The notes below the pieces were generated by a model. It saw only the letters and a program-made list of their open reading frames with translations. It had not been told where the DNA came from and did no database searches. A program made the position numbers and the translations under genes. Below are positions 1 to 15,954 of a stretch of 27,841 nucleotides of DNA, piece by piece. The stretch's first letter is position 1. Every line of letters begins with the position of its first letter. Source of the DNA: a virus; IMG/VR virus record IMGVR_UViG_3300007611_000189, positions 1 through 27,841 of that record, one strand, 5' to 3'.

Positions 1-261
1 GTGCATATAACGTATTAGCCAACCCCACTCAACATCTCGCATGATGTATTCAACTGATGCAAACGCACCTTCCGCAGAAGGCACATAGTTCATTGTAAGC
101 CAAATGCCAGTTAAAAGTTGATTAACAAGCACAAACAGAGACAGAGCACCAAAATAATACCAAAAGTTGAAGTTTTTCGGAGCATAATACTCTGCTACAT
201 GCTCGTTCCATAATTTTGTTGCCGGGAATCGCTCGTCGATCCAATTCATAAATCTACTCAT
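1..261 (-). CDS. petB: Cytochrome b of the bc1 complex (PetB), N-terminal part, cut by window edge
   Basis: The frame is open from an ATG at 261-259 to the window edge, giving the first 87 residues. The peptide has the usual cytochrome b start: an amphipathic stretch with FPATKLWNEH, then YAPKNFNFWYYFGAL, a first membrane helix with VNQLLTGIWLTMNYVP, then SVEYIMRDVEWGWLIRYMH. These are family hallmarks of the quinol:cytochrome c oxidoreductase subunit that carries two hemes b and the Qo/Qi sites in the inner membrane; the heme histidines are downstream, apart from the start of the second helix. A good ribosome site (AGGAG) precedes the ATG, and the gene begins one base after the DUF2244 stop, so the two are coupled. 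Cytochrome b on phage DNA would be very unusual. Whether Rieske protein and cytochrome c1 follow cannot be seen. Confidence 0.88.
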   Translation of the reverse strand, partial: MSRFMNWIDERFPATKLWNEHVAEYYAPKNFNFWYYFGALSLFVLVNQLLTGIWLTMNYVPSAEGAFASVEYIMRDVEWGWLIRYMH

Positions 262-3017: not shown

Positions 3018-3344
3018 TTAGAAAGTAATACTTTCACCGCAACCACAAGCGCCGGCAGCAAGAGGGTTATTAACAACAAGACTGCTGCCTGTCAAGTCTT
3101 CTACGTAGTCGATTTCACAGTCACTTACATAAGTCCAACTTATGTCATCTACGGCAAGATACAATCCTTCATTGATTTCTACAAACTCATGGACGTCTTC
3201 GTTCATGTCTTCGCGGTTGTTAACTTGCCAATTATACATGAACCCGCTGCATCCTCCGCCTTTGACAGAGAATACAACCGTGTCCACAGAACTATTGTTG
3301 GCAATTTTTTGTAGGTGCTTTTTTGCGTTGTCGGTTATATTCAT
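3018..3344 (-). CDS. A-type iron-sulfur carrier (HesB/IscA/ErpA family)
   Basis: 108 aa, the usual length for this family, which accepts Fe-S clusters and passes them to apoproteins. The three conserved cysteines are present: one in GGGCSGFMYNW (near residue 33) and two in the C-terminal AGACGCGESITF. The N-terminus ITDNAKKHLQKI is typical. Similar genes are known in marine T4-like phages of cyanobacteria and Pelagibacter. It begins about 14 bases downstream of the tmRNA coding piece, so both are probably on one transcript; AGAGAG serves as ribosome site. Among its neighbours endonuclease III needs a 4Fe-4S cluster and complexes II and III contain Fe-S proteins, so maturation of these is a plausible role. 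IscA, ErpA and SufA cannot be separated from sequence alone. Confidence 0.9.
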   Translation of the reverse strand: MNITDNAKKHLQKIANNSSVDTVVFSVKGGGCSGFMYNWQVNNREDMNEDVHEFVEINEGLYLAVDDISWTYVSDCEIDYVEDLTGSSLVVNNPLAAGACGCGESITF

Positions 3345-3357
3345 CGAAACTCTCTTG

Positions 3358-3680
3358 GATAGGCGAGTTTTCTGTTGCCAGGATAACTCGAAACCCCGCC
3401 GACTCTACCCGCTTAGGGGATCAAGCCGCAAGTGCAAATTCTTCGTTTGCATTTACTTTATTTGCTAGGATTACGTCCTTCGCCTGTCGGTAACTCCACT
3501 CGCCTAATTGTATCGCCGTCGAAACCATGGCGCCCCCATCATAAGCACCCTGAATATGAGTCAGGACATTCCAATCGGCGATCAACTCCGTTCTTAGAAT
3601 GTGGTTTCGCACCATGCTTATGGTGGAGGCGGCGGGAGTCGAACCCGCGTCCGTCAACCTTTCGGTCTGCTTCATCGTTA
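3358..3680 (-). ncRNA. ssrA: tmRNA, two-piece circularly permuted form
   Basis: The acceptor piece comes first in transcription and ends with CGCCTCC-A-CCA at 3631-3621, preceded by a T arm GCGGG-TTCGACT-CCCGC. The coding piece begins at 3537 with GGGGGCG, which pairs with the acceptor CGCCTCC over 7 bp (one G-U), then the tmRNA D-loop signature ATGGTTTCGACGG. A further 8-bp helix joins 3498-3505 with 3361-3368. The tag frame starts at GCA 3465-3463 and reads ANKVNANEEFALAA then TGA at 3423-3421; the ALAA end is the usual ClpXP degron. The spacer 3538-3620 would be removed in processing. Permuted tmRNA is known from alphaproteobacteria, some cyanobacteria and some betaproteobacteria. Exact 5' end of the acceptor piece and 3' end of the coding piece are estimates. 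Confidence 0.93.
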
Positions 3681-3687
3681 CAATACT

Positions 3688-4156: not shown

Positions 4157-4443
4157 TATCCAAGTTCTTGTCTAAGATGGCTTATATGTTCTTCGTACAA
4201 AGCCGAACCAATGTCGCCGGCTGTTTCTCTAGCTATTTTTTCTCCTATTGCAAGTAGGTTTTTGAGAGCGCTCTTATGGGTATTTACTTCAGTAGCCTGT
4301 CGTTCAGTAGCGTGAGTGCAGGCTTCATAGAAGATTTCTGGTTTGTAAATTGTTTCGTAAACTTCATTTTCGTCTAAACTATCTCGCACTGCAATGGATA
4401 TTGCATCGTTAACTGTGCATGTAAATTTGTGTGTCGCAAACAT
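4156..4443 (-). CDS. Unknown 95-aa protein coupled to sdhA
   Basis: Begins at the last base of the sdhA stop (TAATG) and is coupled in the same way to the next gene. Mostly helical by composition, soluble, with two cysteines (FTCTV near residue 9, EACTHATERQATE near residue 42) and a C-terminal helix ending SHLRQELG. It does not resemble SdhE, SdhB, SdhC or SdhD. Its tight coupling to sdhA makes a partner or modulator of the flavoprotein possible, but position is the only evidence. Confidence 0.65.
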   Translation of the reverse strand: MFATHKFTCTVNDAISIAVRDSLDENEVYETIYKPEIFYEACTHATERQATEVNTHKSALKNLLAIGEKIARETAGDIGSALYEEHISHLRQELG

Positions 4444-6212
4444 TAATAAGTCCTCGCTTTAGGTGGTATCGCATCCATTTCATCTGTAAGTGGTTCGAGA
4501 ACTACGTCTCGATAATCAAACGTGCCTCCCTCCCAATACAAAGTGTGCTTCAACCAATTTTCGTCGTCGCGCTCGAAATAATCATCACGGCTTTGGGCAC
4601 CACGGCTTTCCTTGCGATGTTCCGCTGAACGAATTGTAGCATCGGCCTGTGCCAACATGTTGTCCAGCTCAAATGCTTCCATCAAATCAGTGTTCCAAAT
4701 CATGTTGTCGTCTTCCACCGTGCCCTGTTCAAAACGCTCACGCACTGGCTTCAACTGTTCAATACCCTGTTGCAGTGTTTTTTCCGTTCTAAACACCGCC
4801 GCCTTACTCTGCATAATCTTTTGCATGTCCTGTCGTACTTCGTGTTGTTTTTCATCGCTTCGGCGTGTACGTATTCTGTCAAAACGTGCTAGTGCTTGGT
4901 CAATGCTGTGCTGTGTACTAGGTTTAGGCGTTTCAAAAGGAGTCAGAATTTCTGCACATCTATCTGCCGCGGCTTTACCAAACACAATTAAATCAATAAG
5001 ACTGTTGCTACCTAACCTGTTTGCTCCGTGAACACTTACACAGGCAGCTTCCCCGATGGCCATGAGTCCCGGTACTGTTTTTGTAACACCATCTTCCACT
5101 GTTACAACCTCTGCATGATAATTCGTTGGTATTCCTCCCATATTGTAATGAACGGTCGGAACTATAGGAATTGGTTGTTTAGTTATGTCTACTTGTGCAA
5201 AAATATGAGCTTCTTCTTTAATTCCTGGCAACCGTTCGTTAATAATATCTTGCCCTAAATGCATCAGATTTAGGTCTACATAGTCCCCGTCGGGTCCGCA
5301 ACCTCTGCCTTCATTTATTTCAATTGTAATAGCTCGGCTTACAACATCTCGACTAGCAAGATCCTTTGCGTTTGGAGCATATCGTTCCATAAAACGCTCG
5401 CCTTTACTATTGGTCAAATATCCGCCTTCGCCTCGTGCGCCTTCTGTGATTAAACAACCTACACCATAGATTCCACTTGGATGAAATTGTACAAACTCCA
5501 TGTCCTGAAGAGGAAGACTCTGACGTAACACCATGCCGCCTCCGTCGCCCGTGCATGAATGTGCCGATGTGGCCGATTGATAGACTTTTCCATATCCGCC
5601 TGTGGCTATCACTGTCATATTTGCATCGAATTGATGAAGCGTTCCATCTTCTAAACACCATGCAATACTTCCTGTAATTCTACCTTCATCGTCTTTTAGT
5701 AAATCCGTTGTGTAATGCTCTGAAAAGAAATTTACTCCTTCCGCGAGGCACTGTTGATATAATGTGTGTAGTATTGCGTGTCCTGTTCTATCTGCCGCAG
5801 CACAAGTTCTTTGCACAATGCCTTCTCCATAGTTTGAAGTCATGCCGCCAAATGGACGCTGATAGATTTTGCCTTCTTTGGTGCGACTAAATGGCACACC
5901 CCAATGCTCTAATTCTACAACAGCTTCTGGAGCAGTACGGCACATAAATTCAACAGCATCCTGGTCGCTTAACCAGTCGCCGCCTTTGATAGTGTCATAA
6001 GCGTGCCACTGCCATTTATCTTCTCCCATATTGCCTAACGCAGCTGAAATACCGCCCTGTGCCGCGACAGTGTGCGACCTTGTAGGAAATAATTTACTAA
6101 CAACAGCGATCTTTAAACCTTTTTTAACAAGTCCAATTGCCGCTCGTAAGCCACTTCCGCCGCCGCCTATTACTACTGCATCATATTCGTGTCTGGTTAA
6201 ATTATAATTCAT
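4443..6212 (-). CDS. sdhA: Succinate dehydrogenase flavoprotein subunit SdhA
   Basis: 589 aa, full length. Rossmann FAD motif [13 protein letters not shown] near residue 15; FAD-linking histidine in [13 protein letters not shown] (about residue 46); second FAD region [12 protein letters not shown]; dicarboxylate site residues in QFHPSGIYG and [11 protein letters not shown] with HYNMGGI; C-terminal FAD contact [11 protein letters not shown]; capping and C-terminal domains complete, ending PPKARTY. The subunit oxidises succinate to fumarate and passes electrons via SdhB to quinone. Here no sdhB, sdhC or sdhD is adjacent: the gene overlaps endonuclease III upstream by 4 bases (ATGA) and an unknown gene downstream by 1. 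It must therefore either dock with host SdhB/CD or act alone, as fumarate reductase-like or oxidase activity. All catalytic motifs that I can check are kept, so it does not look like a decaying copy. Confidence 0.96.
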
Positions 6213-6987: not shown

Positions 6988-7082
6988 CAATAGCCTCCTA
7001 GTGTATCAACCAATATAACCGTGCTTATTGCTAAAGCAGGTATTCAAATTGCAATACTATACCACCATTCTGAAATCTTCAT
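6987..7082 (-). pseudogene. Tiny membrane ORF split by an in-frame TGA
   Basis: Starts with an ATG overlapping the cytochrome c stop (ATGA). Reads MKISEWWYSIAI, then TGA (7046-7044), then in the same frame IPALAISTVILVDTLGGY and a final TGA that overlaps the ATG of the 29-aa ORF. The second half is a good hydrophobic helix and both ends are perfectly coupled to neighbours, which suggests a 31-residue protein whose Trp or other codon has become TGA, or TGA readthrough. The intact 12-aa peptide may be all that is made. Confidence 0.45.
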
Positions 7083-7498
7083 AGCGTCTCTACAAAGTTG
7101 CCGATGTCACGCATATCTTGTTCAGTCATCCACGACGCCTGTCCCCACATCATAGCACTTTGTTGTCCTATGGTTTCACCGTTCTTATACTTGGTAAGTT
7201 TGTCCACAATCATGTCGCTTGTCTGTCCTGCTAATGCTGGACCCACACCACCTTGTCCTGCTTGTCCGTGACAGGCTGAGCACTGTTCATAATGTTTAGC
7301 ACCGGCCGCCACTTCAGGTGCGGGTGTGGCAACTTTTATTGTCTCTCCACTATTCCAAGTCACGCCGCAAAACTGTTGACTGCGTTGGCATTGTCCGTTA
7401 TTGAATCCAATGTTTCTAGTTTCTCCACTGCCAAGGAATGCAAACACACCTGCGGTTGCACCGAACATCAAGAACATTCCTACTACTACTTCCTTCAT
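7079..7498 (-). CDS. Membrane-anchored class I cytochrome c
   Basis: 139 aa. An N-terminal hydrophobic helix (about residues 5-22, VVGMFLMFGATAGVFAFL) acts as signal anchor, then a spacer with two cysteines (NGQCQRSQQFCGVTW) and a cytochrome c domain with heme site CSACHGQAGQGG near residue 72 and candidate Met ligands in SAMMWGQASWM; the end is the usual last helix DMRDIGNFVETL. The heme domain would face the periplasm. It resembles c4/c5 or CcoP-type domains; it could carry electrons between a bc1 complex and a terminal oxidase. The pair of spacer cysteines is odd and may form a disulfide. Coupled to the gene upstream (TGA/ATG overlap) and the tiny ORF downstream. Confidence 0.9.
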   Translation of the reverse strand: MKEVVVGMFLMFGATAGVFAFLGSGETRNIGFNNGQCQRSQQFCGVTWNSGETIKVATPAPEVAAGAKHYEQCSACHGQAGQGGVGPALAGQTSDMIVDKLTKYKNGETIGQQSAMMWGQASWMTEQDMRDIGNFVETL

Positions 7499-11877: not shown

Positions 11878-12077
11878 AGTTCACCTCCACAGTGTGGACA
11901 TTTTGGTTTGAGTTCTCGCACAAGGTCTCGCAATTCTTTTGCTTCCTTGATCAGTTTTCGCAGTCGATCCTTTTGGCGATAGCTTTTGGCTTTTAGTAAC
12001 TCTTTTTTGAGATCTTTTTTGATAAGAGTTAGGCGTTGCTCAAACACGCCTGCAAATGCTGTGAATTTTTTGGCCAT
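11874..12077 (-). CDS. Basic coiled-coil protein with terminal CxxC
   Basis: 67 aa. Lys/Leu/Arg-rich helix (LTLIKKDLKKELLKAKSYRQ ... RLRKLIKEAKELRDLVREL) followed by a CPHCGGEL tail. Only one CxxC is present, so a zinc site would need dimerisation. Charge suggests nucleic-acid contact. Unknown. Confidence 0.65.
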   Translation of the reverse strand: MAKKFTAFAGVFEQRLTLIKKDLKKELLKAKSYRQKDRLRKLIKEAKELRDLVRELKPKCPHCGGEL

Positions 12078-12313
12078 TAAAACAACTCCTTTTCCGTAAA
12101 CACACGGAATTCATAGCCTAGTGCACTACAAAAACTGCGTGCGCTTTTCCATTTTGCTTTATTTACTCGCCAGCTTTTTTGATATGCAGGTTTGATCTCT
12201 ACCACAATGGTTCTACCATCATGTGCGTTGACCACGAAGTCTGGATAGTAGTTGCGTATTCTGCCTTCTGGATCTGTATAGGGTATGTGCTGTTCTTCAC
12301 TACTCCAAGTCAT
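12077..12313 (-). CDS. TnsA-N-like PD-(D/E)XK nuclease domain, minimal
   Basis: 78 aa. IRNYYPDFVVNAHDGRTIVV then EIKPAYQ gives the PD...ExK core of restriction-endonuclease-fold nucleases, and the C-terminal helix-strand (ARSFCSALGYEFRVFTEKEL) is typical of TnsA N-terminal-like domains found in phages. Probably a small single-domain endonuclease that acts on DNA. The fold is at the lower size limit, so it may need a partner. Coupled to both neighbours. Confidence 0.75.
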   Translation of the reverse strand: MTWSSEEQHIPYTDPEGRIRNYYPDFVVNAHDGRTIVVEIKPAYQKSWRVNKAKWKSARSFCSALGYEFRVFTEKELF

Positions 12314-12552
12314 TCCGTTTCTCCTTGATGATCTTCAACTTCCCAAGCTCGGTGTAATGTACACCAGTCTTTCAAACAGTGATTTTTTGAGTATTCTCTG
12401 TCAATCACGTTCTTGCCAAATTTTTCACACATGATAGTATACCAACGATCCCAATACCCGTCAAGTATCTGCTGTTCCGATACAGTTATTGTCACACGAG
12501 TCCAGTCGTCGTTTTCGGGATATCTGGGTTCATGGTATCTAAAATATCTCAT
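12310..12552 (-). CDS. Unknown small protein, 80 aa, between dadA and nuclease
   Basis: Aromatic-rich (MRYFRYHEPRYPENDDW, YWDRWYTIMCEKFG), with CLKDWCTLHRAW near the end: Cys-x4-Cys-x2-His could bind metal. The ATG overlaps the dadA stop. No known domain. Confidence 0.6.
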   Translation of the reverse strand: MRYFRYHEPRYPENDDWTRVTITVSEQQILDGYWDRWYTIMCEKFGKNVIDREYSKNHCLKDWCTLHRAWEVEDHQGETE

Positions 12553-13712
12553 TGTTGGTCGAATACCTTGTCGACTATGTTTTTGGCTGTATATGCGCTA
12601 AGAGTCCAACCTAGATGGCCATGACCGGTATTGTAATAGATATGATCGAACTTTTTACTTTGGCGCACTATGGGCATCATGTTTGGAGTCATCGGACGCA
12701 GCCCTGCCCAAGGTTCAGCGTGTTCTAGATTGATACCTTTGAACATTTTTTTCGCCCACTGCTTTAACGGCCGAATTCTCTGCTGTTTGATATCTGTATT
12801 GTAACCTGCAAACTCTGCGGTTCCTGCAATTCTTAGTCTGTCCTCACCCAACCGTGCAGTGACAATTTTCGCAGTGTCGTCTAACAAACTGGTCCATGGT
12901 GCTTTTCCTGGGTTGTTTACAGTGATTGAATATCCTTTTACAGGGTAGATAGGCAGTGTCTCTTTCAACTGTTTGGAGAGGCGGTAACTGTCCACGCCTG
13001 CACATAAAAATACTAATCCGCCGTTGCGTTCTGCTAGTTTTTTCATATCAGATACGGGCGACTGAATGAATCTAACATTGTGGTGATGTTGTAACCATTT
13101 AGTAAGATTTACTGTGAATTTATGAATGTCGCCGGTATAGTCGCTTGTATTATAGAAGCCACCTATTACAGCGGGATTGTCAAGTGCGGGCTCGATGTCT
13201 TTGAGTTCTCCGGGTGTTACTTCCCAACGATCGAGACCAGCTTGTAGATACAGAAGATTTGTTTGTCTTGCTTTCTCTAATTCTTTTTTGTCGGTATAGA
13301 CGTGCAGGATGCCTTTTTCAACACGGTCGAACTCTATACCTGTTTCGTCTGCAATTTCTCTGTATAGATCATGCGCAGTCAGCGCCATCCTACATGTGTC
13401 GATCGTGTTTTGCTGTTGGTCAGGAATAGATGATATAAATTTTAGGAACCATCCATACTTGTGTAGACTAGGAGTCGGATCTATTTTTAATGGGGCATCG
13501 GATTGAAACATCCACTTTATGCCTTTCTGAACGTTTACCCAAGAGTTCCAAGTTTCGGCATTAGATGCTGACAGCTGGCCACCGTTGGCATAGCTGGTAG
13601 CCATTGCAGGATAAGCTCGACTGTCATAGATTGTTACTTCGCAACCTCTTTTGGCCAAATAATAGGCTGTAGTAACTCCTGAAATTCCTGCGCCAACGAC
13701 TATTGCTTTCAT
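12549..13712 (-). CDS. dadA: D-amino-acid dehydrogenase (DadA type FAD oxidoreductase)
   Basis: 387 aa versus about 415-430 in bacteria. N-terminal FAD motif IVVGAGISGVTTAYYLAKRG, YANGGQLSASNAETW, internal LVFLCAGVDSYRL and VKGYSITV, and C-terminal FAD loop AGLRPMTPNMMPIV with YNTGHGHLGWTLS; these are DadA signatures. It deaminates D-amino acids and passes the electrons to ubiquinone at the membrane. D-alanine from peptidoglycan is the classic substrate. The start has AAGAG before it; its end overlaps the next small phage gene (ATGA), so it is built into the phage gene chain. A related glycine oxidase or D-hydroxyproline dehydrogenase is the alternative. With sdhA it is the second quinone-linked dehydrogenase in the window. 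Confidence 0.9.
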   Translation of the reverse strand: MKAIVVGAGISGVTTAYYLAKRGCEVTIYDSRAYPAMATSYANGGQLSASNAETWNSWVNVQKGIKWMFQSDAPLKIDPTPSLHKYGWFLKFISSIPDQQQNTIDTCRMALTAHDLYREIADETGIEFDRVEKGILHVYTDKKELEKARQTNLLYLQAGLDRWEVTPGELKDIEPALDNPAVIGGFYNTSDYTGDIHKFTVNLTKWLQHHHNVRFIQSPVSDMKKLAERNGGLVFLCAGVDSYRLSKQLKETLPIYPVKGYSITVNNPGKAPWTSLLDDTAKIVTARLGEDRLRIAGTAEFAGYNTDIKQQRIRPLKQWAKKMFKGINLEHAEPWAGLRPMTPNMMPIVRQSKKFDHIYYNTGHGHLGWTLSAYTAKNIVDKVFDQQ

Positions 13713-14031: not shown

Positions 14032-14243
14032 GTCATTACCTCGTCTGTTTCACCTCGATTCCAACGATCTACTGCGTCTTCACGCGACTCGCCGTACACC
14101 TGTCTACCGCATCCTCCATTATGACTCATGCAACCAAAAACCCATTCGCTATAATCGCGTGTAAGCGGGTATAAGGTATCAATAAGATTGTCACTCCAAT
14201 TTTTACCGCATTCTTTACAAGGAAGGATCTTTTTACTGTTCAC
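14028..14243 (-). CDS. Lar-like zinc ribbon protein, 71 aa
   Basis: GTG start at 14243. ILPCKECGKNW and FGCMSHNGGCGRQVYG provide two cysteine pairs, then SREDAVDRWNRGE, as in restriction alleviation (Lar) family proteins (CxxC ... C..CG ... EAxxxWN). Lar proteins modulate type I restriction; many phage homologs are untested. Overlaps the upstream gene by 11 bases. Confidence 0.65.
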   Translation of the reverse strand: MNSKKILPCKECGKNWSDNLIDTLYPLTRDYSEWVFGCMSHNGGCGRQVYGESREDAVDRWNRGETDEVMT

Positions 14244-14490
14244 TGTTTTGTATCTCTAACAACTTTAAGTTTAATAGAAAATTTTCTAGTGTCAATCTTG
14301 TAATAGTTGACAACAAAGTTATTTTGTCTTCTTCTGTGTATTCACGTTTATCGAACTGATCAAGAACACTGGAACCGATCATCTTATAGGCTTCTTCTTT
14401 TCCTATATTCAATCGGCCCCAGTCGAAATTTTCGATCTCTTCTGCTTCTCTTGCAATTTCAACCAAAAGTTCGAGATCGATTTTTCGCAT
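14233..14490 (-). CDS. Unknown helical protein, 85 aa
   Basis: Acidic, all-helical by composition (LELLVEIAREAEEIENFDWG, YKMIGSSVLDQFD, LTLENFLLNLKLLEIQNSEQ). The ATG overlaps the TAA of the histone-like gene (TAATG). A conserved T4-like phage hypothetical by style; function unknown. Confidence 0.65.
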   Translation of the reverse strand: MRKIDLELLVEIAREAEEIENFDWGRLNIGKEEAYKMIGSSVLDQFDKREYTEEDKITLLSTITRLTLENFLLNLKLLEIQNSEQ

Positions 14491-14666
14491 TAGAGTTCGT
14501 TCTTGCGATCTTGGATTTCTTTTCTACGTTCTTTGGAAAGCTTTCCAATATCGCCGAGTGCCTTGCGAGCACGTGTTGCAGCGGCTTTAACATTCTTAGA
14601 ATCGAATGCTTCTGCTTCTTTGAGATAGTTTTCGTAGGCTTCTACGATCTGTTCGTGTAGTGTCAT
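14490..14666 (-). CDS. Small histone-H1-like basic protein, 58 aa
   Basis: MTLHEQIVEAYENYLKEAEA then FDSKNVKAAATRARKALGD and LSKERRKEIQDRKNEL. The segment NxKAAxTRARKALxxxxKLxKERRKEIQ is what I recall from histone-H1-like (Hc1-type) proteins of marine bacteria and cyanophages, thought to bind DNA. Good AAGGAG site before the ATG. Confidence 0.7.
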   Translation of the reverse strand: MTLHEQIVEAYENYLKEAEAFDSKNVKAAATRARKALGDIGKLSKERRKEIQDRKNEL

Positions 14667-14685
14667 GTTTTCTCCTTTTGTTACA

Positions 14686-15099
14686 CTATTTTATCCAGCC
14701 GATCTTTCGGCCTTGTTTTTTTCGCGTGTCCCATTCTTCAATAGATCCCGGGAAACGCCATGCCCATAATGCTACTAATGCCATAAATGCTCCGCTCCAA
14801 AGCACTGCCTTTACATTGCCGGAGGTTATCCATAGAAACGCTAGACTAGAGCACATAACTAAGAGCATAGCATATTTTGCTTTTATAGGAAAAACCTTGC
14901 GCTCTGTCCAGTTTGTTAGAAACGCCCCAAACCAAGGATGATTATATAACCAATTGTGTAATCTAGGTGAGCTTTTAGCAAATGCCCATGCTGCGACTAC
15001 AAGGAATATTGAAAAAGGTATTCCTGGTAGAACAAAACCCACATAAGCCATGCCTACACATACAATACCTAATGCAATATATAGATACTTTTTGATCAT
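14686..15099 (-). CDS. YbaN/DUF454 family inner membrane protein
   Basis: 137 aa. Three to four membrane segments: residues 5-38 (a hairpin with VLPGIPFSIFLVVAAWAFAKSSPR), 77-95 and 98-114. The motif LPGxPxxxxLxxAxxxFAxSSPRxxxWL with HPxxGxxxxxW is the DUF454 signature; E. coli YbaN is of this family, function unclear. It starts on the last base of the PAAR stop (TAATG), so a host-type membrane gene is joined to a baseplate gene. Confidence 0.88.
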   Translation of the reverse strand: MIKKYLYIALGIVCVGMAYVGFVLPGIPFSIFLVVAAWAFAKSSPRLHNWLYNHPWFGAFLTNWTERKVFPIKAKYAMLLVMCSSLAFLWITSGNVKAVLWSGAFMALVALWAWRFPGSIEEWDTRKKQGRKIGWIK

Positions 15100-15398
15100 T
15101 AGTTACCTACAAATACGTCGGGCGAGCCTTGGTCTGTGAACGGATTGCAATGTGGATCTCCGACTACAGGACATAAGTTATCAGGTTCGGCATTATCAGG
15201 CGTATTGTTGACTACAAGTTTGTTGTTTACGTAGACTTGATTAGTTGCCGCTTTTAGATCGCCAGCACCGTGAGTGTTAGGATCCTTGTCGACAGACACA
15301 AGAAGATTGTTAACATAAACATTGCTCTGGCCTACAACAGTGGTAGTCGCCCCGCATATTCTTGCATCAGTATCGCGATGTATAGGATCCGAGCTCAT
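15099..15398 (-). CDS. PAAR-motif protein, likely tail spike tip
   Basis: 99 aa. DPIHRDTDARICGATTTVVG, VYVNNLLVSVDKDPNTHGAG, then VYVNNKLVV and LCPVVGDPHCNP. The repeats of short beta strands with conserved Cys and His match PAAR-like proteins, which form the metal-binding sharp cone on the gp5 spike of T4-like phages and on T6SS VgrG. Overlaps its neighbours by one base. Good evidence for a contractile-tail phage. Confidence 0.85.
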   Translation of the reverse strand: MSSDPIHRDTDARICGATTTVVGQSNVYVNNLLVSVDKDPNTHGAGDLKAATNQVYVNNKLVVNNTPDNAEPDNLCPVVGDPHCNPFTDQGSPDVFVGN

Positions 15399-15685
15399 TA
15401 TACAGCGAGCCCTGTTGTGTTCTGCATATATTGTGTTGCCATGTCTTGCTCGGTTTTAGCAATGCAACTAACACTGTTTAGATGAATTAAAAAGGTTGTG
15501 TCTTGATCAACTGTGAACATAAAAGGAGCAAGACCTAGGCCCTGTTGCGTTGCCGCAACCATGAGCGGCTTTTCCAATTTAAAGCCTGTGCCAGTTTCGT
15601 CGTCTAGTCTTCCTACTATCTCTTCTCCAGAATTAAGTTTGAGAGATACAACATCACCTTTTTGATACGGTGTTTCGATTAACAT
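15398..15685 (-). CDS. Sm-like small beta protein of marine T4-like phages
   Basis: 95 aa. YQKGDVVSLKLNSGEEIVGR followed by KLEKPLMVAATQQGLGLAPF and a C-terminal strand pair. The start resembles an Sm/LSm fold (LxxGxxVxGxL), and similar proteins are common in cyanophages. Function unknown; RNA binding is possible. Confidence 0.7.
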   Translation of the reverse strand: MLIETPYQKGDVVSLKLNSGEEIVGRLDDETGTGFKLEKPLMVAATQQGLGLAPFMFTVDQDTTFLIHLNSVSCIAKTEQDMATQYMQNTTGLAV

Positions 15686-15954
15686 TATAATTTACCTTCT
15701 GTAGAATTAGTGCGAGTCTGTTCTATGTGCAATTCGAGGTCACTATAACCTCCAATGTAATTACCGTTTAACCAAATCTGCGGAGCAGATCTTGGACGTG
15801 GTATTCCCTCGCTGTCGCACTGTTCAAACAGTTGATCAGCTGTCCAATCTTCACCAAGCACACGCTCTTCGTACTCGATATCAATACTGTCCATTAGATG
15901 TTTTGCCTTGTCACAAAAAGGACAAGTGGTCTTACTCCAAATTATTGCTTTCAT
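15685..15954 (-). CDS. Glutaredoxin
   Basis: 89 aa. Dithiol site CPFC at residues 11-14, cis-proline in SAPQIWLNGNYIGGYSDL with the glutathione-contacting GGYSDL. Uses glutathione to reduce disulfides; encoded close to nrdB/nrdA it is the expected electron donor for ribonucleotide reductase, as in T4 (nrdC). The TAA is shared with the next ATG. Confidence 0.93.
   Translation of the reverse strand: MKAIIWSKTTCPFCDKAKHLMDSIDIEYEERVLGEDWTADQLFEQCDSEGIPRPRSAPQIWLNGNYIGGYSDLELHIEQTRTNSTEGKL

What the first reader, a model, noticed from the sequence alone, without database searches (positions are those of the whole stretch)
3358..3680. Permuted two-piece tmRNA encoded in a phage-like genome
Acceptor piece with T arm and CCA precedes the coding piece; 7-bp acceptor stem and an 8-bp internal helix form across the pieces; tag ANKVNANEEFALAA. 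tmRNA is known in some phages but mostly in one-piece form. A viral tmRNA might rescue ribosomes stalled by mRNA degradation, or tag proteins differently from the host.
Basis: partly seen in the sequence, partly recalled or inferred. Interest (0 to 1): 0.78.

Follow-up and report, generated by a model that had tools for sequence, protein, structure and literature searches.

The report
Phage split tmRNA with hairpin spacer
A bacterial virus carries its own gene for a two-piece ribosome-rescue RNA, a kind already known in phages, but the throw-away segment between the two pieces is a structured hairpin that in other phages is shared as a near-identical unit between otherwise unrelated viruses, which does not seem to have been described.

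Summary
In detail: a permuted two-piece tmRNA gene lies on the minus strand, about 3681-3361. Rfam tmRNA_permuted scores 115 bits and ARAGORN also calls it. The window is phage: a 275-kb viral contig shares its nrdA-nrdB-glutaredoxin-tail block and carries a permuted tmRNA on the same side and strand. Phage two-piece tmRNAs are already published (Melnitz, PMC9004378), so the gene is a new member of a known kind.

What looks new is the excised inter-piece segment. Here it is 83 nt, extending the acceptor stem through CCA (pairing with a UGAU linker) into a hairpin. The same plan occurs in 10 of 12 phages chosen without regard to it, in at least 120 viral contigs, and in a few alphaproteobacteria. 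Of 121 phage segments, 70 fall into 24 sequence families. Thirty family pairs from otherwise unrelated contigs share 91% of the segment, while the mature tmRNA stays at background identity. The excised part is therefore exchanged, or selected, as a cassette of unknown function; the window's own cassette is a singleton.

Side finding: phages here encode SdhA, cytochrome b and KatG.

The parts
3361..3681 (-). permuted (two-piece) tmRNA gene, precursor
   Evidence: RF04321 115.3 bits 3681-3421; RF01849 70.2 bits ending 3361; RF01850 81.2 bits, gathering 84; ARAGORN
3621..3681 (-). acceptor piece: 5' helix strand GUAAC (3681-3677), T arm, acceptor 3' strand CGCCUCC (3631-3625), discriminator A 3624, encoded CCA 3623-3621
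   Evidence: Rfam alignment, sequence
3538..3620 (-). excised inter-piece segment (83 nt): hairpin arms UAAGCAU 3620-3614 / GUGCUUA 3548-3542, inner hairpins, linker UGAU 3541-3538
   Evidence: model R1 built from other phages scores the window 80.7 bits
3361..3537 (-). coding (mRNA-like) piece: acceptor 5' strand GGGGGCG 3537-3531, GUUAC 3494-3490, tag frame, 3'-terminal hairpin CGAGUU 3390-3385 / AACUCG 3369-3364; the 3' end is placed by similarity
3421..3450 (-). tag reading frame ANEEFALAA + UGA
   Evidence: ARAGORN; resume context as in SAR11 and Rfam consensus
3018..3344 (-). A-type Fe-S carrier protein gene downstream; L149 also has one near its tmRNA
   Evidence: Pfam PF01521; L149
15398..24795 (-). 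phage block glutaredoxin - nrdB - nrdA - tail protein - exonuclease, upstream of the tmRNA; shared with the 275-kb contig G030 that also has a permuted tmRNA
   Evidence: PHROGs; synteny

Best explanation
This is a phage-encoded permuted two-piece tmRNA. One precursor is transcribed. The acceptor stem, CCA paired with UGAU, and the inter-piece hairpin form one long helix. Host RNases (inferred: RNase P at G3537 and 3' trimming to CCA) remove the hairpin, leaving two pieces held by the acceptor stem and an internal helix. Host AlaRS charges it at the G3-U70 pair, host SmpB carries it to stalled ribosomes, and nascent proteins get ANEEFALAA and go to host proteases. The gene is kept because mRNA decay during infection stalls ribosomes. 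The removed hairpin is a modular cassette that phage tmRNA genes exchange. Shown: the gene, structure, tag frame, synteny, hairpin covariation and cassette sharing among other phages. Inferred: processing, charging, rescue and the benefit to the phage.
For: Rfam and ARAGORN. Fold z-scores. The related 275-kb contig has a permuted tmRNA about 3.5 kb from the shared nrdAB block, same strand. L149, with a 58%-identical FAD oxidoreductase, also has one. Mature features are kept in 86 non-redundant phage tmRNAs: G3-U70 in all, T and acceptor stems with compensatory changes (the search pattern fixes the outer acceptor bases). Tags mostly end in ALAA-like motifs. Hairpin: 10 of 12 phages chosen without regard to it have UGAU/UGAC, and all 12 a flanking helix of at least 7 bp; compensatory changes occur at stem positions not fixed by the search pattern. 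Cassette sharing: 30 pairs with core 0.91 against T arm 0.76, coding 0.69 and 0.63, where background medians are 0.75, 0.675 and 0.63; the edges coincide with the piece boundaries. No phage SmpB in 27 records, so a host partner is needed.
Against: No expression, processing or infection data. The host is unknown, so host tag and tmRNA cannot be compared. The window's own cassette matches no family (best 0.64). Cassette hits came from a pattern that fixes about five nucleotides of each arm. The hairpin is not phage-only: a few alphaproteobacterial tmRNAs have it, with UGAU.
Confidence: 0.8

Rival explanations
1. The phage tmRNA competes with the host's: it titrates SmpB or retags proteins to manipulate host proteolysis rather than to rescue ribosomes.
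For: The tRNA-like-domain-only RNA of phage DS6A, or a similar molecule, inhibits tmRNA (PMC4131195, PMC11915505). No phage SmpB in 27 records.
Against: A full tag frame with an ALAA end and an intact acceptor/G3-U70 is kept across many phages, as expected for active trans-translation.
Confidence: 0.12
2. A passive passenger: a host tmRNA captured by imprecise excision or transduction, without function in the phage.
For: ssrA is a common integration site and fragments occur in prophages (discussed in PMC9004378).
Against: Complete gene with compensatory changes; kept near the same nrdAB block in a divergent relative; same precursor hairpin in many unrelated phages.
Confidence: 0.04
3. A host chromosome fragment misclassified as virus.
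For: The left part holds cytochrome b, KatG, SdhA, Nth, cytochrome c and GlyA genes, usually cellular.
Against: All main genes on one strand, interleaved with small ORFs; nrdAB/tail/exonuclease block syntenic with viral contigs; sdhA 72-73% to viral contigs against at most 66% to cells; sdhA, nth and cytochrome b also lie among replication genes in viral contig G001.
Confidence: 0.03
4. Cassette similarity among other phages reflects vertical descent with extreme constraint on the excised segment, not exchange.
For: Perfect stems and a constant UGAU imply constraint.
Against: There are 24 dissimilar families and 51 singletons, and mature parts of same-family pairs are at background, with T-loop types switching within families.
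Confidence: 0.25

Closest known systems
Permuted tmRNA of Alphaproteobacteria (Rfam RF01849/RF04321), e.g. SAR11
   Same: Piece order, acceptor and T arm, internal helix, tag frame, 3'-terminal hairpin with CUGGCAACAGAA; some alphas also have an inter-piece hairpin and UGAU
   Different: The window has a canonical GGTTCGA T-loop instead of GGGGGCRGTACCC, an 83-nt segment against mostly 9-56 nt in the sampled cells, and scores slightly better with beta_tmRNA (81 against 70 bits)
ssrA of Methylophilales phage Melnitz (PMC9004378)
   Same: Two-piece tmRNA in a marine myophage; hairpin TAAACACTT/AAGTGTTTA + UGAT
   Different: Alpha-type T-loop, 142-nt segment; a glutamine riboswitch is reported there, none found in this window
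tmRNA of Stenotrophomonas phages (Moby, Menderavirus)
   Same: Permuted, hairpin and UGAU, near nrdA
   Different: About 0.9 kb from nrdA; gammaproteobacterial hosts; different cassette
tmRNA with group I intron (tmRNA_intron)
   Same: A tmRNA gene carrying a removable RNA segment (PMC11915505)
   Different: The intron sits in the T-loop region and self-splices; here the segment lies between the pieces and the ends need not be rejoined

Membership tests
permuted (two-piece) tmRNA | acceptor piece precedes coding piece | tested here: met
   Rfam RF04321 full-length match, ARAGORN tmRNA*
permuted (two-piece) tmRNA | 7-bp acceptor stem with G3-U70, T arm, encoded CCA | tested here: met
   sequence
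permuted (two-piece) tmRNA | in-frame degradation tag ending AA + stop | tested here: met
   ANEEFALAA, UGA
permuted (two-piece) tmRNA | mature RNA in two pieces after excision | not testable with these tools
   needs RNA-seq or northern blot
permuted (two-piece) tmRNA | alanine charging and SmpB-dependent tagging | not testable with these tools
   biochemistry needed; no smpB in the 27 phage records searched
alpha-type tmRNA (RF01849) | score over the family cut-off | tested here: met
   70.2 against 50 bits
alpha-type tmRNA (RF01849) | alpha T-loop GGGGGCRGTACCC | tested here: not met
   canonical GGTTCGACTCC in the window
beta-type tmRNA (RF01850) | score over the family cut-off | tested here: not met
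   81.2 against 84 bits
phage-type hairpin cassette (defined here) | flanking helix from CCA plus UGAY linker | tested here: met
   7 bp + UGAU, model R1 80.7 bits
phage-type hairpin cassette (defined here) | core shared with another phage at 80% or more | tested here: not met
   best 0.64: the window's cassette is a singleton in this sample

The most novel reading that the evidence does not exclude
Phage permuted tmRNA genes are docking sites for exchangeable RNA cassettes. The stem that permutation makes removable releases a small structured RNA at every maturation, and these RNAs have functions of their own (for example decoys or regulators against host defence; a few contain tRNA-like arms), so phages swap them while keeping different tmRNA bodies.
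Probability: 0.3. Interest if true: 0.85.

Novelty: new variant of a known kind. Interest (0 to 1): 0.55.

Why it matters
The tmRNA itself adds one more to a known list. The discarded segment matters more: in phage tmRNA genes it is structured, covarying, and shared at 80-100% identity between viruses whose mature tmRNAs are at background similarity. That is the reverse of what a neutral spacer would show, and it makes the purpose of permuted tmRNA genes in phages testable.

Tried and rejected
Searching the 14-residue tag found nothing, but that tag is wrong; the correct core tag was searched only in 398 Pseudomonadota genomes (none). Other generic patterns for viral permuted tmRNAs gave nothing or only L037. 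A phage-only hairpin was considered and dropped: the strict pattern is absent from 385 alpha and 369 gamma genomes, but the covariance model found similar hairpins with UGAU in a few alphaproteobacteria. Cassettes as mobile elements elsewhere: no copies outside the tmRNA in the fetched loci and none in 50,697 phage records for two tested cassettes. A common inner fold for the cassettes: none seen. Glutamine riboswitch as in Melnitz: no Rfam hit in the window. Phage-encoded SmpB: none in 27 records. sdhA/katG/dadA in isolated phages: the hits inspected look like bacterial sequence filed as phage.

Full report
What is there. On the minus strand the window encodes a complete permuted tmRNA. Rfam's tmRNA_permuted model matches full length (3681-3421, 115.3 bits against a cut-off of 47) and alpha_tmRNA extends to 3361; ARAGORN agrees. 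With laxer settings beta_tmRNA scores 81.2 bits, just under its cut-off. The acceptor piece ends in CCA at 3623-3621; the coding piece starts at 3537 with GGGGGCG, which pairs with CGCCUCC and includes the G3-U70 pair that AlaRS needs (established knowledge). The predicted fold is much more stable than shuffles (z -3.4 and -4.1).

The tag is ANEEFALAA: the second in-frame GCA (3450) sits in the conserved context UAAAU-GCA-AAC-GA found in the Rfam consensus and in SAR11 tmRNAs whose tags are ANESYALAA or ANQKFALAA. The upstream GCA belongs to a conserved element before the frame. The 8-bp complement is within the coding piece; the piece-joining helix is GUAAC/GUUAC, and the coding piece ends in a hairpin that covaries with GGAGGC/GCCUCC in cells.

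It is a phage gene. All main genes lie on one strand. NrdA, NrdB, glutaredoxin, tail and exonuclease genes are syntenic with viral contigs, one of 275,366 bp (G030), which carries a permuted tmRNA about 3.5 kb from the same block, on the same strand, with ARAGORN tag ANSNFKPEVFANFDEVAIAA. L149, with a 58%-identical FAD oxidoreductase and an Fe-S carrier, has another, with tag ANDNFYSEDFALAA. No smpB was found in 27 phage records including G030 and seven isolates, so host SmpB must serve; some of those records are fragments.

Known context. Two-piece tmRNAs in phages are published: of 133 unique phage tmRNA structures, 53 were two-piece and 50 of those marine or aquatic (PMC9004378). The 2025 tmRNA database lists 79 phage sequences (PMC11915505). 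By itself this gene is a new member of a known kind.

The inter-piece segment. Here it is 83 nt. The fold extends the acceptor stem: ACCA pairs with UGAU except for one C-A mismatch, followed by UAAGCAU/GUGCUUA and inner hairpins. In 12 phages chosen without regard to this feature (8 named isolates and 4 contigs, the window included), all have a flanking helix of at least 7 bp and 10 have UGAU or UGAC; cellular segments are mostly 9-56 nt and usually lack the helix. It hits none of 385 alpha and 369 gamma genomes. In 86 non-redundant sequences the stem shows many compensatory changes, including positions the pattern leaves free, and RNAalifold gives 13 of 26 pairs with double changes. The percentage paired is inflated because the register was chosen to maximise the helix; the variety of pair types is not. 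A model built from 32 other viral loci scores the window 80.7 bits. The hairpin is not exclusive: a few alphaproteobacterial tmRNAs score as high and have UGAU. It is probably an old processing feature that phages keep.

Cassette sharing. Among 121 phage segments, 24 families (70 members) and 51 singletons appear at 80% core identity. In 30 same-family pairs whose contigs show under 200 nt of translated similarity outside the tmRNA, the core is 0.91 identical on average, while T arm plus acceptor (0.76), coding 8-47 (0.69) and coding 48-180 (0.63) are close to the background medians (0.75, 0.675, 0.63). One of these pairs (L184/L257) also has a similar mature tmRNA and was left out of the profile. 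Similarity starts and stops at the piece boundaries: L192 and L221 share 60 of 62 nt although their T-loops are of different types. The contigs are fragments, so relatedness elsewhere in the genomes cannot be excluded, and the pairs are not independent of one another. Either cassettes are exchanged or they are selected more strongly than the mature RNA. I favour exchange. The window's cassette has no family yet.

Mechanism. Most likely the RNA is matured by host RNases, charged by host AlaRS and used with host SmpB to free ribosomes stalled during infection, tagging the products for host proteases. Everything after the gene itself is inferred. A search of the open-access papers for an intervening segment of permuted tmRNA found nothing; that library is incomplete, so novelty of the cassette is provisional.

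Noticed in passing
window 1-261, 765-2897, 4443-6212, 7079-7498: Phage-borne genes for respiratory cytochrome b (cut by the contig end), KatG, succinate dehydrogenase flavoprotein SdhA and a cytochrome c; SdhA is 72-73% identical to two other viral contigs and at most 66% to cells; cytochrome b has no match in 50,697 phage records and the sdhA/katG matches inspected look like bacterial sequence.
   Followed up: partly
L150 2362-3612 (-), with sdhA 14055-15812 and nth 12691-13368: A second viral contig (G001) encodes a full 416-aa cytochrome b next to a DNA polymerase III alpha-like gene and near a DnaB-like helicase gene, plus SdhA and Nth: phage-encoded parts of respiratory complexes II and III.
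   Followed up: partly
window 12549-13712: D-amino-acid-dehydrogenase-like FAD oxidoreductase, 58% identical to one in L149, which also has a permuted tmRNA.
   Followed up: no
window 12077-12313: Short TnsA-like endonuclease N-terminal domain protein; a relative in G030 (L146) at 36%.
   Followed up: no
L179, L211, L228, L277, L285 inter-piece segments: Some cassettes contain tRNA-like arms (GGTTCGAATCC; CTTTTAA with GCGGGTTTGAGTCCCG); ARAGORN calls weak tRNAs in them at a relaxed threshold.
   Followed up: partly
L300 (Tunturiibacter phage Tunturi_4): A release-factor-domain (RF-1) protein gene is annotated just upstream of the phage's permuted tmRNA, a possible second ribosome-rescue factor.
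   Followed up: no
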